Source: Legionella hackeliae (lineage in GTDB: Bacteria > Pseudomonadota > Gammaproteobacteria > Legionellales > Legionellaceae). Taken from it: a stretch of 64,000 nucleotides of DNA. Positions 9,104-15,075 of this stretch are shown piece by piece. A program made the translations under genes and the position numbers. The notes under the pieces are model-generated. The model had not been told where the DNA came from. It saw only the letters and a list, made by a program, of their open reading frames with translations, and did not search any database. Numbering within the stretch: position 1 is the stretch's first letter; each line of letters begins with the position of its first letter. The DNA lies in contig NZ_LN681225.1 in the NCBI RefSeq assembly GCF_000953655.1, positions 760,001-824,000 on the forward strand. The letters are read 5' to 3'.

Positions 9104-10573
9104 TTAGGGAGGGGTGTGTTGTGGTTGAGCATCGGGTTCTGGGATATCAGGTATGGGTGTTTCACGTAATGTATTCAATTCTTTTTTATACTTTGCAAGA
9201 TCTGTAGTTGCAGGAGCTTTGGCGCTTTCTTCTCGTTCTGCCTTCAAATTTTTTGCGATTCTTTCTGTTCGTTGAAGACGAGTAGGGTCTTTATCAAACA
9301 ATCCACCAGGCTCACCTTCTTTGTGACTGGAACTAGTCAATTTTCTGTCGGCACCGTTGACTTTGATGGATATTTTGTCAGGTTCAAAACCAGCATTGAT
9401 GCAGGCTTCATACATTTTTCTTGCGTATTCTTCTGCTTCTAAAGGGTCTTTTTCATAATTAACATTAATAGTAACGGTATCATGACCACAGGCTCTTACG
9501 GCTTCTGCGAGACTTTGAAGATCATAATCTACCTGTTGATGGCGACTGTTGTAATAAATGAAACCGAATTTAGGAAGTTGCACATTAAAACTACCGTCTG
9601 GGGCTTTAACAATGTCTCTTCCTGTAATTGTTTTTAGTACAGATAGATCCTCAACACGCATATTTTTTAAGTTAACGCTACCGGTGTCAGGATTACTGCT
9701 CATTATTACGCCGGGTTGCTTTATACCCATTTTCTTCAAGTTTTGGGTAGCAAGTTCATCAATAGCTTTCTGAAACTCTTTGTTATTGAGGGTGCGCATA
9801 GCACCAATATAGGCAATACGATCATGCTCGCGTTGTATTGCTTGATGAGTCATTGAAATACTATCGTTAACACCGCTTTCAAATTCTTTCAGTTTTGCAG
9901 CATGTGATTTATCGGATGCGTCAATCAGTTCATCAATTGCATTATCAATTTCGTCGTCACCAGTTAAACCCATTACATTTTGTAGATGAGTTCTAAAATT
10001 CACATCGGTTTTTAAGTCCATCAAATTTTGCTTGGCTTCAGCTTGATGAGCCTTAATGGCATCCATTGCTTCTACCTTGGAGGCATGAAGTATTCCCGGG
10101 AGATTCTTAATTAATTTATTGTATTCCTGAATTTCCTGAGGAGTGCCTGTGACAGGAGGATTTTTTAGCCTTTGGTTGAGCATCTCCATGTCGTTATTAA
10201 AACGCTCAAGTGCTGTTGTCAGTGTGGGCGTATCTTGCAATGCCGTTTTAATTGCATTTTTAACATCAGGTGTATTGGCATGGTTGCTCTCTTGCAATCT
10301 CTTCCAGTTATCCCCTAGAGCAGGTGCTGTAATCGGTTGTTTTTTATCGTCTTTCTTACCGGTATCTACCTGAAATTTAAGAAGATCAGTTAACCCTTTA
10401 TCACGTGTTTTCTGATAGGTATTAAAACTCTCAGTCCCTGAGACACCTTGAGAAAGGTGAATACTTTGCAAATACTGCTCAATAAATTCTTTTCGTTTGG
10501 AAGGACTGAAATATTTATCGAGGTCTTTGGTGGTACTAAGAAGTCTAAATAGTGGATAGTTAAAAAGCCCCAT
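9104..10573 (-). CDS. Orphan protein, candidate Dot/Icm effector
   Basis: I do not recognise this 489-residue protein. It is helical and charged, with no signal peptide and no clear membrane segment. A long coiled-coil-like region covers roughly residues 100-290. A compact alpha/beta stretch (about 320-410, with GFIYYNSRHQQVDYD, DTVTINVNY and PDKISIKVNG) loosely resembles LPD7-type domains, but that is a weak guess. The C-terminus combines a Glu-rich segment (KAEREESAKAP) with a proline tail, as in many translocated Legionella proteins. AGGA precedes the ATG, and a PmrA-box-like promoter lies at 10606-10637. Effector status is inferred from promoter, composition and lack of housekeeping homology. 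Confidence 0.6.
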   Translation of the reverse strand: MGLFNYPLFRLLSTTKDLDKYFSPSKRKEFIEQYLQSIHLSQGVSGTESFNTYQKTRDKGLTDLLKFQVDTGKKDDKKQPITAPALGDNWKRLQESNHANTPDVKNAIKTALQDTPTLTTALERFNNDMEMLNQRLKNPPVTGTPQEIQEYNKLIKNLPGILHASKVEAMDAIKAHQAEAKQNLMDLKTDVNFRTHLQNVMGLTGDDEIDNAIDELIDASDKSHAAKLKEFESGVNDSISMTHQAIQREHDRIAYIGAMRTLNNKEFQKAIDELATQNLKKMGIKQPGVIMSSNPDTGSVNLKNMRVEDLSVLKTITGRDIVKAPDGSFNVQLPKFGFIYYNSRHQQVDYDLQSLAEAVRACGHDTVTINVNYEKDPLEAEEYARKMYEACINAGFEPDKISIKVNGADRKLTSSSHKEGEPGGLFDKDPTRLQRTERIAKNLKAEREESAKAPATTDLAKYKKELNTLRETPIPDIPEPDAQPQHTPP

Positions 10574-10733: not shown

Positions 10734-11513
10734 TTACTGCCAGGCTGGAAGGGCTGCATCCCCAAAAAGCTCTTTTGCTTTTGCTTTTACTTCAGGTGAG
10801 TTCATTGCTTTAACAAATTGTTCAAGCTGAGGCTTTTTAATGCTATCTCGGCGAATTACAATTAAGTTTGCATAGGGGGAGTCTTTACCTTCTTTATAAA
10901 TCGCATCTCGAGAAGGGCTAAGTCCTGCAGGAATTGCAAAAGTCGTGTTGATGACTGCTGCATCAACATCCGTTAAAACTCGAGGCAATTGCGCGGCATC
11001 AAGCTCTTTAATGACCAGTTGTTTAGGGTTGGTCGCGATATCGGACACTGATGTCGTGTCAGCTTTTTTTAGAGTAATCAATCCTGCTTTTTGCAAGAGT
11101 AATAGGGCACGTGCCTCATTACTGGGATCATTTGGGATTGCAATAATTGCTTTATTCTTCAATTGTTTTAACGATTTAACCTTGTTCGAATAAATACCCG
11201 CTGGATAAACAAAGGTCTTTCCTATTACTTCCAAATTATAACCATGTGCTTTCATAGCAGCTTGTAGATAAGGTAGATGCTGATAAACATTGGCATCGAG
11301 ACTACCATCGTCTAACGCTTCATTCGGTAAATTATAATCATTAAATTCAACAATTTTGATTTCAAGATCAAACTCTTTTAAAGCAACATCCTTGGCAACT
11401 TCTACTAATTCAGTTTCAGGACCTGCTATGGTGCCAATGTTTAATGCATTCGGGGAGGGTTTATTGCAGGCAACTAAACCAACTATCAAGACGAACAGGC
11501 TTAAAATACGCAT
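10734..11513 (-). CDS. metQ: Methionine ABC transporter substrate-binding lipoprotein
   Basis: Captures methionine in the periplasm for the MetNI importer. The 259 residues start with a lipoprotein signal, lipobox LVAC with cysteine at residue 16, followed by the NlpA/MetQ fold (IGTIAGPETELVEVAKD, then YNLPNEALDDGSLDANVYQHLPYL). It is the last gene of metN-metI-metQ, 39 bp after metI, and is followed by a clear terminator. Expression should follow the SAM-II-like element ahead of metN. Confidence 0.94.
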   Translation of the reverse strand: MRILSLFVLIVGLVACNKPSPNALNIGTIAGPETELVEVAKDVALKEFDLEIKIVEFNDYNLPNEALDDGSLDANVYQHLPYLQAAMKAHGYNLEVIGKTFVYPAGIYSNKVKSLKQLKNKAIIAIPNDPSNEARALLLLQKAGLITLKKADTTSVSDIATNPKQLVIKELDAAQLPRVLTDVDAAVINTTFAIPAGLSPSRDAIYKEGKDSPYANLIVIRRDSIKKPQLEQFVKAMNSPEVKAKAKELFGDAALPAWQ

Positions 11514-11552: not shown

Positions 11553-12200
11553 TTAATTATGCGAAAAGCGCCGTGCCAAACGGTCGCCTCCCATTTGCAA
11601 CAATTGCACAATGACAACCAATATCACGACAGTGGCTAGCATGATTCCAATATTGAAGCGCTGATAGCCATAGCGAATTGCTAAATCGCCCAAGCCTCCG
11701 CCACCGACTGTACCTGCCATTGCCGAATAATTTACCAGTGTAATTGCTGTAACTGTAGTCGCCTGAATTAACGCAGGGAAAGCTTCAGGGAATAAAATAA
11801 AGCGAATCATTTGCCAGGTATTTGTACCCATTGAGAAGCCGGCTTCAATTAATCCATTGGGCACATTTTGATAAATGTTATCTACTAACCGGGCAAAAAA
11901 AGGGGTGGCTCCTAATGTTAGTGGCACCATGGCCGCATGTATACCGATGGATGTTCCCACTAATAACCGGGTAAATGGAATTAGTGCAACCAAGAGGATG
12001 ATAAAAGGAATAGAACGGCTGAAATTAATAAATCCTGAAATAAAACGATTTAAAAAGGCATGCGGCTTAATTTTAGTACTACTAAAAAGAAGAGTTCCTA
12101 ATGGTAAGCCCAGCAAAACAGCGAAGAAGGTGCTGACGAGCACCATGTATAGAGTTTCGCCACTGGCTATTAATAAATCATAAAGCATTGTCAGTGACAT
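11553..12200 (-). CDS. metI: Methionine ABC transporter permease
   Basis: Inner-membrane permease of the MetNIQ importer. The 215 residues contain five hydrophobic spans and the BPD-transporter EAA loop ([22 protein letters not shown]), which docks on the MetN ATPase. The start overlaps the end of metN by 23 bases, which implies coupled translation. The gene is of normal length and intact. Confidence 0.95.
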
Positions 12201-13203
12201 ACCCTAAAATCTCCACAGTTAAATTGGACGCTTCGCAGCGCTTGATAAATAAATCTAATAAGTTTTTATCCGCAATTAATTCAACGACTAAGACACCGCA
12301 AGTGACCCTATCAAAACGATCAATATTGGCCAATAAAATATTAATGTCCAGATTTAATTCGCGGCTGGTTTGGCTAATGAATGGCACAGTAGCGTTATCT
12401 CCCTGGAAAAATAAACGTAACAAGGGTTTATTGTTCGGGGTATTGGACAGGGAATTACGTAGACATACCGGAAGCTCAGGACTTAATTGTGCGTAAAGCA
12501 TACTGCGAGCTTGACTATCTTTGTTATTGAATACACTTGCTAATGCAGTTGTTTCAATGATGGCTCCTGCCTCCATCACTGCCAGACGATGGCAAATACG
12601 TTTTACGACTTCCATTTCATGGGTAATCAAAACAATCGTTATCCCATAGAGGCTATTGATTTTTTTCAAGAGTTCTAAAATGGAGTTTGTTGTTTCGGGG
12701 TCTAGTGCAGACGTGGCCTCATCACAAAGCAAAATTTTAGGGGAACAACTAAGCGCTCGCGCGATAGCCACCCGTTGTTTTTGACCACCGCTTAGTTGAT
12801 CAGGATAAAAATTTATTTTTTCTTCAAGTTCCACTAAAGGTAAAAGTTCCTCAATCCTGCTTTTAATAACTGCTTCGGACATTCCTTGAATCCGCATTGG
12901 GAGCGCAATATTTTCGTAAACGGTTTTTGAACTCAAGAGGTTAAAATGCTGAAAAATCATCGCCATCTTATGGCGTGCAATTCGCAATTGCCTGGCAGAG
13001 AGGGTGGTTAAGTCTTCGTTATCAATAACAACTTCACCACTGTCTGGTTGTTCTAATAAATTGACAGAGCGTAGCAAGGTGGATTTACCCGCTCCACTTC
13101 TACCAATAATGCCAAAAATCTCGCCTTCTTGCACAAATAAGTTAACGTTGCGCAAAGCAATAGTATTCGCATAGGATTTATTTAATCCATTTAATTCAAT
13201 CAT
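12178..13203 (-). CDS. metN: Methionine ABC transporter ATP-binding protein
   Basis: ATPase of the methionine importer, 341 residues. Walker [10 protein letters not shown] lies near residues 34-42, followed by the Q-loop FQHFNLL, signature [14 protein letters not shown] and Walker [13 protein letters not shown]. The C-terminal NIL domain (about 265-341) senses methionine and inhibits transport in homologues. First gene of metNIQ; CAGGT lies a few bases ahead of the ATG. A SAM-II-like riboswitch lies 47 bases upstream, which supports methionine as the substrate. Confidence 0.95.
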
Positions 13204-13249
13204 GATTTTACCTGACAGTTACAGCGTGCAGGGTAAAGAAGGAAGAGAA

Positions 13250-13320
13250 CCCGCTTTAGCCGTATTTACAATAGAGTTGCTATTGAGCGCCCGCAAGCTG
13301 AATTTCAAATCGGCGCAGGG
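13250..13320 (-). ncRNA. SAM-II-like riboswitch in the metNIQ leader
   Basis: Read on the minus strand, GCGCC (13316-13312) pairs with GGCGC (13291-13287) to form P1. The enclosed loop has GATTTG at its 5' side and CAGCTTGC at its 3' side, both hallmarks of SAM-II aptamers. Downstream comes TAAATACGGCTAAAGCGG with the conserved GCTAAAG. AAGC can pair with GCTT of the P1 loop, giving the H-type pseudoknot of this class. Unlike the minimal aptamer, a six-pair hairpin (CAATAG/CTATTG, 13285-13269) is inserted between P1 and the 3' strand. The methionine transporter genes directly downstream fit the ligand. The ribosome site is about 35 bases beyond the aptamer. Confidence 0.68.
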
Positions 13321-13435
13321 TACATGATACACGAACTTTCGATTGAAGAAAACTCTTAGCTTAAATTTTTAGTTCGATTATTTTTTACATTTAGACAGTG
13401 TGTGAGCAATCAATCTTTGCATAAAACTCACAGTC

Positions 13436-13527: not shown

Positions 13528-15075
13528 ATGAGCCAAGAAGTTAAGCCTGTAAGTGCTTTTAAAACCTTAGAAGCCGAGTATGAAGCAAAAATCGCGCAAA
13601 TTCGTAAGGATTTTCGTGACATACTAAATAGGGTAAGAGCAATTAAAGAAATGAAAGATTTTCTAGAAGCTAGTAAATCTAGAGATGTTTCAAACAAAAA
13701 TGATCCAGCCCAAGGTTCAAACCCAGAAAGTTTACCTCCGGAAGGTTCACTGCCAAAGAGCTCTATGGAGAGTGGAGCGATAGTAATTGACCCTTTCACG
13801 AAGTATGAGCAAGATTTTAACAACAAGAAATCGGACCTCAAAAAAATAGTGTCATTTGGGGATGATAAAAAAATTCTCGTTGAGTTTGCTCAAAAAGTTT
13901 TTAATCCCCTAGTGGAATTAGAAACGAATGTTATAAAGTTAAACAAAGTTGGGAAAAAACTTCCTTCCTTTATTAAGCGACATCACCTTAAAGAGTTAGT
14001 GTCTATTGAACCTGAATTATTAAGTTTGTTCATAGGGCAAGATGCCTGGTTAAGTCGTTTAATTGGCACAGATACTGAAAAGGCTGCACAAGAGTCTAAA
14101 GAGCAATTCGAAAAACGGCTCCAACCCTTTAAAGATTCAATTACCAAATTATCTGAGCATAAAGCAAGCTATCTTCCACTCCTTAAGCGATTTGAAGAAG
14201 GAACACTCTCAGAATTTACTCATTTTAGTAGAGAAAAGCGTAGTGTAGAGAATATAATTCAATCGCTTCGTGTTTATGCTAGTCGTGCCACAGATGAGGG
14301 CCATTACAAAACAGAAATAGATGATGAGTATGGAAAATATAAAGATATTCCTTTGCATTATCTCAGTGACTCTCTTCGTAAAAAACAAGGGAAAGTGTTA
14401 GATAACATTTTGGGACAACTCGCAAGAATTGATAAGTTTCGCAAAAGTGATGCAGATATTTCGTCAGGTTATCAAGCACAAATCACTTTCCTTGAGAAAG
14501 TTTTGAAAAGCCAGCAGCCATGGGAAGTGGAATTGGAAGTGCAGCTTAAGCATAGGGCTAAATTAATTGCGAAAGAAGAAAAACGATTCAAAGAAGAGGA
14601 CAAAGATTATTTAGCAGCAGCCGATGATCAAAAGAAACAAAAACATTTATTACAAGCTCATTTGTCCGCCTTTCAAGGGAAATTGCCAGATATTGAGGAA
14701 GAACAGGCTGCTTATTTAGAGCAGCAAAAGGAATACGCTATTCTGTTTAAGAAAAATATTAATCCTTTCGGTCTCTCTAAAGATAGAGAGGAAGCAGATA
14801 CTTATGTTCTCACACAATTGACCAAACTTTATCGTACTTTTGTAGTGGCTGAATCAGCTCGAATTGTTCTAGCTGCCGCTGATGCTTCTGCAAAAGAAAA
14901 GCAAAATGTTAAAGTTGCATCTCCTAGTACGACAGAAAAGCAATCTAACGTTGCTGAGGACAATGACTCTTCCAGAAAATCGGGTTATGGACGAGATCGA
15001 TTTTTTACGGAAGGGAGTCATCCCTCATCAACCGACGAAGAATTGCAGATTACGTCAGAAAATACTCCAAAATAA
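13528..15075 (+). CDS. Orphan coiled-coil protein, candidate Dot/Icm effector
   Basis: I do not recognise this 515-residue protein. It is strongly charged (Lys/Glu-rich) and largely helical, with coiled-coil-like stretches near residues 1-50, 95-150 and 280-400. It has no signal peptide or transmembrane segment. The last 60 residues are polar and disordered-looking and end with an acidic stretch (SSTDEELQITSENTPK), compatible with a C-terminal translocation signal. The start is ATG at 13528 with a weak ribosome site. The promoter at 13436-13468 carries a perfect PmrA-type tandem box, the strongest reason to suspect an effector. A terminator shared with the convergent gene follows. Confidence 0.6.
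   Translation: MSQEVKPVSAFKTLEAEYEAKIAQIRKDFRDILNRVRAIKEMKDFLEASKSRDVSNKNDPAQGSNPESLPPEGSLPKSSMESGAIVIDPFTKYEQDFNNKKSDLKKIVSFGDDKKILVEFAQKVFNPLVELETNVIKLNKVGKKLPSFIKRHHLKELVSIEPELLSLFIGQDAWLSRLIGTDTEKAAQESKEQFEKRLQPFKDSITKLSEHKASYLPLLKRFEEGTLSEFTHFSREKRSVENIIQSLRVYASRATDEGHYKTEIDDEYGKYKDIPLHYLSDSLRKKQGKVLDNILGQLARIDKFRKSDADISSGYQAQITFLEKVLKSQQPWEVELEVQLKHRAKLIAKEEKRFKEEDKDYLAAADDQKKQKHLLQAHLSAFQGKLPDIEEEQAAYLEQQKEYAILFKKNINPFGLSKDREEADTYVLTQLTKLYRTFVVAESARIVLAAADASAKEKQNVKVASPSTTEKQSNVAEDNDSSRKSGYGRDRFFTEGSHPSSTDEELQITSENTPK

What the first reader, a model, noticed from the sequence alone, without database searches (positions are those of the whole stretch)
13250..13320. SAM-II-like riboswitch with an extra inserted hairpin ahead of metNIQ
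The minus-strand leader of the methionine importer shows the SAM-II core: P1 (GCGCC/GGCGC), loop GATTTG ... CAGCTTGC, then TAAAT ... GCTAAAG, with GCTT/AAGC able to form the pseudoknot. SAM-II is best known from alpha-proteobacterial metA/metX/metZ leaders. Here it precedes a transporter in a probable Legionella and carries a six-pair hairpin inserted between P1 and the 3' strand. The ribosome site is not inside the pseudoknot, so the switching mechanism may differ from the standard design.
Basis: partly seen in the sequence, partly recalled or inferred. Interest (0 to 1): 0.75.

Follow-up and report, generated by a model that had tools for sequence, protein, structure and literature searches.

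The report
SAM-II riboswitch with extra hairpin
An RNA switch that very probably senses the methyl donor SAM sits at the start of a Legionella methionine-importer message, and it belongs to a widespread form of a known switch that carries an extra hairpin and seems to have been filed under other names.

Summary
The finding holds. The metN leader (window 13316-13250, minus strand) carries a complete SAM-II core: P1, GAUUUGA, the GCUU/AAGC pseudoknot and GCUAAAG. A hairpin (P3) sits between P1 and the A-rich strand. Rfam's SAM-II model misses the window (11.2 bits), but a Legionellaceae metN leader without the hairpin scores 29.5 bits (E 1.7e-5) and relatives across the class up to 48.5. The hairpin is in 49 of 50 collected Legionellaceae leaders, and its arms change together (0 of 5000 shuffles). 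It is not unique to Legionella: many Betaproteobacteria have a hairpin at the same site before metX, metZ or metH, which fits a separately described 'metXZ' element. The consensus of Rfam's 'Burkholderia sRNA' Bp2_287 is the reverse complement of this form. P3 stands where the related SAM-V riboswitch has its P3, although print says SAM-II lacks one. No intrinsic terminator was found in 47 P3-type metN leaders. Downstream sequence is complementary to the aptamer (30 of 41 leaders, p<0.05), so two exclusive folds are likely. The readout is unresolved: Rho-dependent termination is my first guess, translation or stability about as likely. SAM binding was not tested.

The parts
13324..13329 (-). 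TATCAT, likely -10 box, ending 7 nt before P1, so transcription probably starts at or next to P1
   Evidence: Best hexamer in the 22 nt before P1 matches TATAAT at 5 or 6 of 6 positions in 45 of 50 Legionellaceae leaders (20.8% of shuffles) and ends 6-9 nt before P1 in 39 of 50; the generic promoter scan did not list it
13312..13316 (-). P1 5' strand GCGCC
   Evidence: Pairs with 13287-13291; one pair changes C-G to U-A in 5 of 48 relatives
13305..13311 (-). L1 / third strand GAUUUGA
   Evidence: Invariant in 48 aligned Legionellaceae aptamers, most of them collected with GATTTG fixed; matches the RF00521 consensus
13295..13300 (-). P2 pseudoknot 5' strand CAGCUU
   Evidence: Pairs with 13251-13256 (one A-G mismatch); 98.8% of cells paired but almost invariant
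13287..13291 (-). P1 3' strand GGCGC
13269..13285 (-). P3, the inserted hairpin CAAUAG-CAACU-CUAUUG
   Evidence: 49 of 50 Legionellaceae leaders have it; arms 83.8% paired against 65.6% in shuffles, 0 of 5000; 6 of 7 pairs with change on both sides
13261..13268 (-). L3 UAAAUACG; A13266 and A13265 invariant; C13262 can pair with G13292 (P1a)
   Evidence: P1a closing pair G-C in 211 of 216 sites, plus one A-U, one U-A and three unpaired
13250..13260 (-). P2 3' strand and conserved segment GCUAAAGCGGG
   Evidence: GCUAAA invariant in 48 aptamers
13222..13233 (-). Anti-aptamer strand CCCUGCACGCUG, complementary to CAGCUUGCGGG 13300-13290
   Evidence: 30 of 41 leaders p<0.05, mean z -2.67; four control motifs 0, 1, 0 and 1 of 41; forms in the predicted SAM-free fold
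13201..13220 (-). Ribosome-binding region (AGG 13213-13211) and ATG 13203-13201 of metN
   Evidence: ORF
12178..13203 (-). metN, importer ATPase
   Evidence: Best NCBIfam hit TIGR02314, 370.7 bits, below its cut-off of 499.7; NIL domain PF09383 58.1 bits, over its cut-off of 24
11553..12200 (-). metI, permease
   Evidence: NF008049 231.8 bits, over its cut-off of 212
10734..11513 (-). metQ, binding lipoprotein
   Evidence: TIGR00363 267.9 bits, over its cut-off of 228.85; PF03180

Best explanation
A SAM-II riboswitch of a P3-bearing form found in Legionellaceae and Betaproteobacteria. It sits at the 5' end of the metNIQ mRNA and turns the methionine importer down when SAM is plentiful. Shown by comparison: the SAM-II core, the P3 hairpin by covariation, the metN target, no intrinsic terminator found, and a downstream strand complementary to the aptamer. 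Inferred: SAM binding, from conservation of the core; the direction of control; and the two-state switch. In that model, without SAM the downstream CCC..GCUG strand pairs with CAGCUUGCGGG, closing a three-way junction with P3 and a second hairpin that captures UAAAG. With SAM the aptamer forms and this C-rich, G-poor linker is freed. My first guess for the readout is Rho-dependent termination on the freed linker (about 0.35, lowered from 0.4 after the window's own linker proved less extreme than the family mean). Reduced translation or altered mRNA stability together are about as likely (0.35). The confidence below is for the SAM-II identity and SAM-responsive control, not for the readout.
For: RF00521 scores 29.5 bits (E 1.7e-5) on L032, a Legionellaceae metN leader that lacks P3, and 22.0-40.8 bits on 13 of the 14 non-Legionellaceae loci L009-L022 (all but L017). 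It exceeds its cut-off in 30 of 369 class genomes, best 48.5 bits. P3 covaries. By a loose motif test the gene downstream is a methionine gene at 143 of 148 P3-type and 51 of 59 P3-less sites. My terminator script found one in 0 of 47 P3-type metN leaders and 0 of 3 P3-less metN leaders, against 64 of 103 other P3-type and 35 of 44 other P3-less sites. Anti-aptamer strand: 30 of 41. In folding, the core pairs downstream with P>0.4 in 28 of 41 leaders, and linker exposure rises by more than 0.1 in 23 of 41 and falls so in none; the latter partly follows from the constraint imposed. C exceeds G in the linker of all 41; over 55 to 15 nt before the start the excess is 0.19 per nt on average against 0.00 (sd 0.08) for 44 window ORFs. 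L. pneumophila is a methionine auxotroph (PMC3920079, passage), which fits an importer as target.
Against: The window has no significant Rfam hit, RF00521 does not list it in its own genome, none of the five P3-bearing Legionellaceae loci gave an RF00521 hit at E 10, and none of six beta or other P3-type loci did at E 0.1. The P2 pseudoknot is too conserved to covary. In one search the bare number of pairs with two-sided change (7) is reached by 51 of 500 shuffles, though the other measures are reached by 0 to 4. No biochemical evidence of SAM binding exists here. Predicted Shine-Dalgarno exposure does not change consistently between states across 42 leaders (mean difference 0.016; it falls on binding in 8 and rises in 6). 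No Rho site was tested, only composition, and the window's own value is 0.125, with three other window ORFs higher. Complementarity to GCUAAAGCGGG alone is weak (5 of 41).
Confidence: 0.82

Rival explanations
1. Same SAM-II aptamer, but a plain translational OFF switch: with SAM, UUUACCCUG (13237-13229) is freed and pairs with CAGGUAAA (13214-13207), masking the ribosome site; without SAM, CUUUA is held by UAAAG.
For: In the window the predicted Shine-Dalgarno exposure falls from 0.44 to 0.12 when the pseudoknot strand is held.
Against: Not shared: among 42 Legionellaceae leaders the mean change is 0.016; exposure falls by more than 0.05 in 8 and rises so in 6. The near relatives L040 and L041 show no change.
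Confidence: 0.2
2. The RNA is a SAM-II relative that has drifted to another ligand, or uses the aptamer only as a roadblock or stability element.
For: Low Rfam score in the window; P2 shows no covariation; no terminator found.
Against: The core letters shared with the SAM-II consensus are invariant in 48 aptamers (partly by collection) and the target genes are methionine genes.
Confidence: 0.07
3. The conserved stretch is a DNA or protein-binding element, not a riboswitch; the hairpin is incidental.
For: The core is so conserved that base-pair exchange in P2 cannot be seen.
Against: Hairpin arms change together (0 of 5000 shuffles); P1 has a compensatory change; the element lies downstream of a conserved -10-like box and precedes terminators in relatives; the SAM-II covariance model recognises relatives.
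Confidence: 0.03

Closest known systems
SAM-II (SAM_alpha, RF00521)
   Same: P1, GAUUUGA, GCUUGC, GCUAAAG, pseudoknot, P1a pair, methionine genes
   Different: P3 hairpin inserted after P1; P1 letters differ; metN target; anti-aptamer platform with no terminator found; the window scores under the Rfam cut-off
SAM-V riboswitch (crystal structure paper PMC6061858; passages and section 19 read)
   Same: A stem-loop P3 directly at the 3' end of P1, then stacked adenines, then the ascending P2 strand; the paper calls its SAM-binding core nearly superimposable on SAM-II
   Different: P3 is 3 bp in SAM-V; the Shine-Dalgarno lies in P2a there; no SAM_V row. The correspondence is positional; homology of the two P3s was not tested
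metXZ element of beta-proteobacteria (Leyn 2014, PMC4239095; passages read)
   Same: Before metX/metZ in betas, pseudoknot between conserved regions 1/4 and 2/6, terminators behind; one search finds P3-type SAM-II before metX/metZ in betas
   Different: Described as a novel element and, in the passages read, not linked to SAM-II (the term occurs twice, in the introduction and the reference-like part shown). The identity is my inference; their alignment (Figure S2) was not seen
Bp2_287, Burkholderia sRNA (RF02424; PMC3521395, passages read)
   Same: Reverse complement of its printed consensus reads GCGUCGAUUUGA..CAGCUUGCGGACGC-GGG..CCC-GAAACAGCUAAAGCG; located before metX/metZ
   Different: Filed as an sRNA on the opposite strand; its hits here are all below its cut-off of 70 bits; the paper does not contain 'SAM-II'
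SAM-II long loops (RF01726)
   Same: SAM-II core; 24.3 bits on L032
   Different: In the printed model the extra pairing lies inside the P1 loop, not between P1 and the 3' strand

Membership tests
SAM-II riboswitch | Covariance-model match to RF00521 | tested here: inconclusive
   Window 11.2 bits, E 3.4; five P3-bearing Legionellaceae loci no hit; P3-less Legionellaceae leader L032 29.5 bits, E 1.7e-5; over cut-off in 30 of 369 class genomes
SAM-II riboswitch | Conserved core letters GAUUUGA, GCUUGC, GCUAAA | tested here: met
   The window has all of them. Invariant in 48 Legionellaceae aptamers, but most were collected with these letters fixed. The model search, which did not fix them, also finds sites with GAUUGC in place of GCUUGC (L123, L127, L129)
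SAM-II riboswitch | H-type pseudoknot P1 plus P2 | tested here: met
   P1 and P2 each 98.8% of cells paired; P1 has one two-sided change, P2 none, so P2 is compatible rather than proven
SAM-II riboswitch | P1a Watson-Crick pair predicted by Barrick and Breaker 2007 (PMC2258182, passage) | tested here: met
   G-C in 211 of 216, A-U 1, U-A 1, unpaired 3; many sites were collected with this G fixed
SAM-II riboswitch | Upstream of methionine or SAM genes | tested here: met
   metN in the window; 143 of 148 P3-type sites by motif
SAM-II riboswitch | Binds SAM, rejects SAH | not testable with these tools
   needs probing or calorimetry
SAM-V riboswitch | Match to the SAM_V covariance model | tested here: not met
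   No SAM_V row up to E 10
SAM-V riboswitch | P3 stem-loop at the 3' end of P1 | tested here: met
   SAM-V description in PMC6061858
SAM-V riboswitch | Shine-Dalgarno inside P2a | tested here: not met
   AGG lies about 40 nt downstream

The most novel reading that the evidence does not exclude
P3-bearing SAM-II is a structural bridge between SAM-II and SAM-V, spread over Legionellaceae and Betaproteobacteria. Legionellaceae rewired it from the terminator readout of its relatives to an anti-aptamer fold that exposes a Rho loading stretch when SAM binds, which would be a SAM-II switch working through Rho.
Probability: 0.28. Interest if true: 0.7.

Novelty: new variant of a known kind. Interest (0 to 1): 0.56.

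Why it matters
It joins items held apart in print and databases: SAM-II, very probably the beta-proteobacterial metXZ element, and a Burkholderia 'sRNA' whose Rfam consensus is on the opposite strand. It shows that the SAM-II model misses much of a large class: over cut-off in 30 of 369 genomes, against 183 of the same 369 matched by a model built from gamma sequences. It contradicts the printed statement that SAM-II has no P3, which makes the evolutionary link to SAM-V testable. For Legionellaceae it gives a candidate direct SAM control of the methionine importer.

Tried and rejected
Direct Shine-Dalgarno masking as the general mechanism: not supported, no consistent change in 42 leaders. Pairing of the ribosome site with AUUUGA, seen in the window's predicted SAM-free fold: not a shared feature, because the motif CGCCGAUUUGA showed no enrichment (0 of 41). 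A hairpin unique to Legionella: rejected. An intrinsic terminator in the window: none found. SAM-V membership: no model hit. A second SAM-II site in the same genome: model R1 lists only this one at E 0.1. The 17 weak RF00521 hits in the own genome are chance level, since all 14 control genomes ring at that threshold.

Limits of the counts. Patterns fixed the core letters, so core invariance in those sets is partly by construction. By record title 62 of the 80 are Betaproteobacteria, 10 Legionellaceae or Legionellales, 8 other (my count by eye). The 50 Legionellaceae leaders are those collected; three more found by model R1 (L120, L121, L122) also have an insert of that kind, and two further Legionellaceae sites not before metN (L123, L126) have none. 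Searches use 41 of the 45 leaders aligned (long leaders and the P3-less L032 left out); one search uses 42. One search uses 48 aptamers, one duplicate dropped. The terminator and gene-type counts come from my own simple scripts over the loci then held. In one search, counting by hand, 54 of 87 Legionellaceae genomes match at E 1e-6 or better; G009 and G016 of the same genus have no match at E 0.1, and I did not look at why.

Print searches for prior naming: in open-licence PubMed Central papers only; papers were seen as listings or passages, with one section of PMC6061858 read whole. None of what I saw links metXZ or Bp2_287 to SAM-II, or reports SAM-II before Legionella metN. Subscription papers were not searched. 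Barrick and Breaker 2007 already report SAM-II in beta- and gamma-proteobacteria and may contain P3-type members in alignments I did not see.

Full report
What is there. On the minus strand, ahead of metN, the window holds GCGCC-GAUUUGA-AAUU-CAGCUUGC-G-GGCGC, then a hairpin CAAUAG-CAACU-CUAUUG, then UAAAUACG and GCUAAAGCGGG. The genes downstream are metN, metI and metQ (MetN is below the NCBIfam equivalog cut-off but carries the NIL domain). A TATCAT box ends 7 nt before P1. A hexamer matching TATAAT at 5 or 6 of 6 positions lies in the 22 nt before P1 in 45 of 50 Legionellaceae leaders, against 20.8% of shuffles. The mRNA therefore probably starts at the riboswitch, which is inference; the generic promoter scan did not list this box.

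Is it SAM-II? The Rfam model fails on the window (11.2 bits, E 3.4, aligned to the P1 half only) and does not list it in its own genome. The link comes through relatives. The gapped core pattern is in 69 of 142 related genomes (backward control: one match). Of 20 loci scanned, 14 have an RF00521 hit: two over the cut-off of 36 bits (40.8 and 38.7) and twelve at 22.0 to 33.4. The six without are L017 and five P3-bearing Legionellaceae loci. L032, a metN leader from the same family that lacks the hairpin, scores 29.5 bits with E 1.7e-5 when scanned alone, and 24.3 bits with the long-loop SAM-II model. A model from 48 Legionellaceae aptamers (R1) finds hairpin-length and hairpin-less sites in many other families, several at E 1e-8 to 1e-15. 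P1a, a pair predicted for SAM-II by Barrick and Breaker 2007 (PMC2258182, passages), can form in 213 of 216 sites, many of them collected with one of its letters fixed. I therefore count it as SAM-II, with the model test recorded as inconclusive for the window itself.

Distribution. A model of the hairpin-less gamma form (R2, 19 sequences) matches 183 of 369 genomes sampled across the GTDB class at E 0.001; that GTDB class also takes in the Betaproteobacteria (recalled). RF00521 matches 135 of the same 369 at E 0.01 but passes its cut-off in only 30. Across the phylum R2 matches 77 of 398. Leyn 2014 (PMC4239095, passages) reported SAM_alpha only in Rhizobiales and Rhodobacterales. Barrick and Breaker 2007 and Meyer 2009 (PMC2704228, passages) report SAM-II in gamma- and beta-proteobacteria too. 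So the wide spread is partly known, and its extent appears underestimated.

The extra hairpin. 49 of 50 collected Legionellaceae leaders carry it. Using 6 positions from each arm in 36 distinct arm pairs, 83.8% of positions pair against 65.6% when arms are dealt out anew (0 of 5000). On the aligned set of 48, 6 of its 7 pairs show changes on both sides; over the whole structure 63 cells have such a change against 21.5 in shuffles, although the bare count of pairs with such a change (7) is reached by 51 of 500 shuffles. The same site holds a hairpin in Betaproteobacteria (Undibacterium, Derxia, Methyloversatilis and many metagenome bins) ahead of metX, metZ, metH and related genes. The 69 distinct beta and other inserts fold better than shuffles (mean z -2.54, 45 of 69 with p<0.05), as do 48 distinct Legionellaceae inserts (mean z -3.33, 35 of 48). 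In L117 (genome G115, another family, metN) the same site holds an insert of 147 nt, with an RBS-like GAGGA right after GCUAAA. The site between P1 and the A-rich strand therefore tolerates anything from a few to well over a hundred nucleotides.

Other names for the same thing. The metXZ element of beta-proteobacteria was described with conserved regions 1/4 and 2/6 forming a pseudoknot and a terminator behind. P3-type SAM-II before metX/metZ fits this, though I could not see that alignment. Rfam RF02424, Bp2_287, an 'sRNA' found upstream of metX and metZ (PMC3521395, passages), has a consensus whose reverse complement is this riboswitch, P3 included. In one search its hit lies on the strand opposite to the SAM_alpha hit in all eight loci that have both, and in G330, G218 and G425 opposite to the R1 hit. 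All its hits here are below its own cut-off of 70 bits. RF00521 itself gave no hit at E 0.1 on six P3-type loci from betas and their kin, where Bp2_287 hit five.

Relation to SAM-V. The SAM-V crystal paper (PMC6061858; passages, section 19) describes a stem-loop P3 leaving the 3' end of P1, followed by stacked adenines and then the ascending P2 strand, and states that P3 is absent in SAM-II. The hairpin found here is in that very position, in front of invariant adenines. This is a positional match; common descent was not tested.

How it may switch. In sites not before metN my script usually finds an intrinsic terminator (35 of 44 P3-less, 64 of 103 P3-type), and half or fewer carry a plain complement of GCUAAA nearby (22 of 44 and 41 of 103), the expected antiterminator. 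In P3-type metN leaders none was found (0 of 47), nor in the window. Instead, 30 of 41 Legionellaceae leaders carry a strand complementary to CAGCUUGCGGG, the joint of P2 and P1, beyond shuffles (mean z -2.67), while four control motifs gave 0, 1, 0 and 1 of 41. The predicted ligand-free fold of the window is a junction of that anti-aptamer helix, P3, and a hairpin that captures UAAAG (-27.3 kcal/mol; -19.9 with the aptamer core held, no credit for P2 or SAM). Over 41 leaders the core pairs downstream with mean probability 0.54, and P1 forms with 0.24. With the aptamer held, the linker is more exposed by over 0.1 in 23 of 41 leaders and less in none, which follows in part from the constraint. 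The linker is C-rich and G-poor (means C 0.38, G 0.13; C exceeds G in all 41). Over 55 to 15 nt before the start the excess averages 0.19 per nt against 0.00 (sd 0.08) for 44 window ORFs, but the window's own metN value is 0.125, fourth of the 44. This suggests, without showing, Rho loading when SAM is bound; riboswitches acting with Rho are known (search listing). A ribosome-masking model works in the window but not across the family. I rate Rho at about 0.35 (0.4) and translation or stability at about 0.35 together.

Results against. No SAM binding data; the pseudoknot does not covary; the window's own Rfam score is chance level; a local fold of the leader is not better than shuffles; and not all Legionellaceae genomes have the element (54 of 87 at E 1e-6 or better, by my count; G009 and G016 of the genus have none at E 0.1).

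Verdict. The novelty lies less in Legionella than in a widespread P3-bearing form of SAM-II that seems to have been filed under other names, and in the changed platform ahead of metN.

Noticed in passing
L032 1495-1570; L009, L011, L015, L016, L019, L021, L022: Rfam RF02424 (Bp2_287, 'Burkholderia sRNA') matches these SAM-II sites on the opposite strand, below its cut-off; its consensus is the reverse complement of a P3-type SAM-II, so the Rfam family looks mis-stranded.
   Followed up: partly
L126 539-590, minus strand (genome G082, Legionellaceae): A second, P3-less SAM-II-like site upstream of a 130-aa frame (start MAKFNQILSLTS) with no recognised methionine motif.
   Followed up: no
L125 251-303 and 1488-1540; L124 240-295 (genome G134): Several SAM-II copies in one small genome, before what looks by eye like a homocysteine methyltransferase gene and Cys/Met PLP enzymes; G331 has ten matches.
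   Followed up: no
L129 and L088: SAM-II sites ahead of metK (SAM synthetase) in relatives of the class.
   Followed up: partly
L177 5358-5423: A record titled Alistipes senegalensis holds a beta-type P3 SAM-II before metX; possibly a mis-binned contig.
   Followed up: no
L117 (G115): A 147-nt insert between P1 and the A-rich strand of a SAM-II metN leader, with complementary ends UUAGAGCC/GGCUCUUA by eye.
   Followed up: partly
window 13528-15075 + and 9104-10573 -: Large ORFs flanking metNIQ with no Pfam or NCBIfam match at E 0.001.
   Followed up: no
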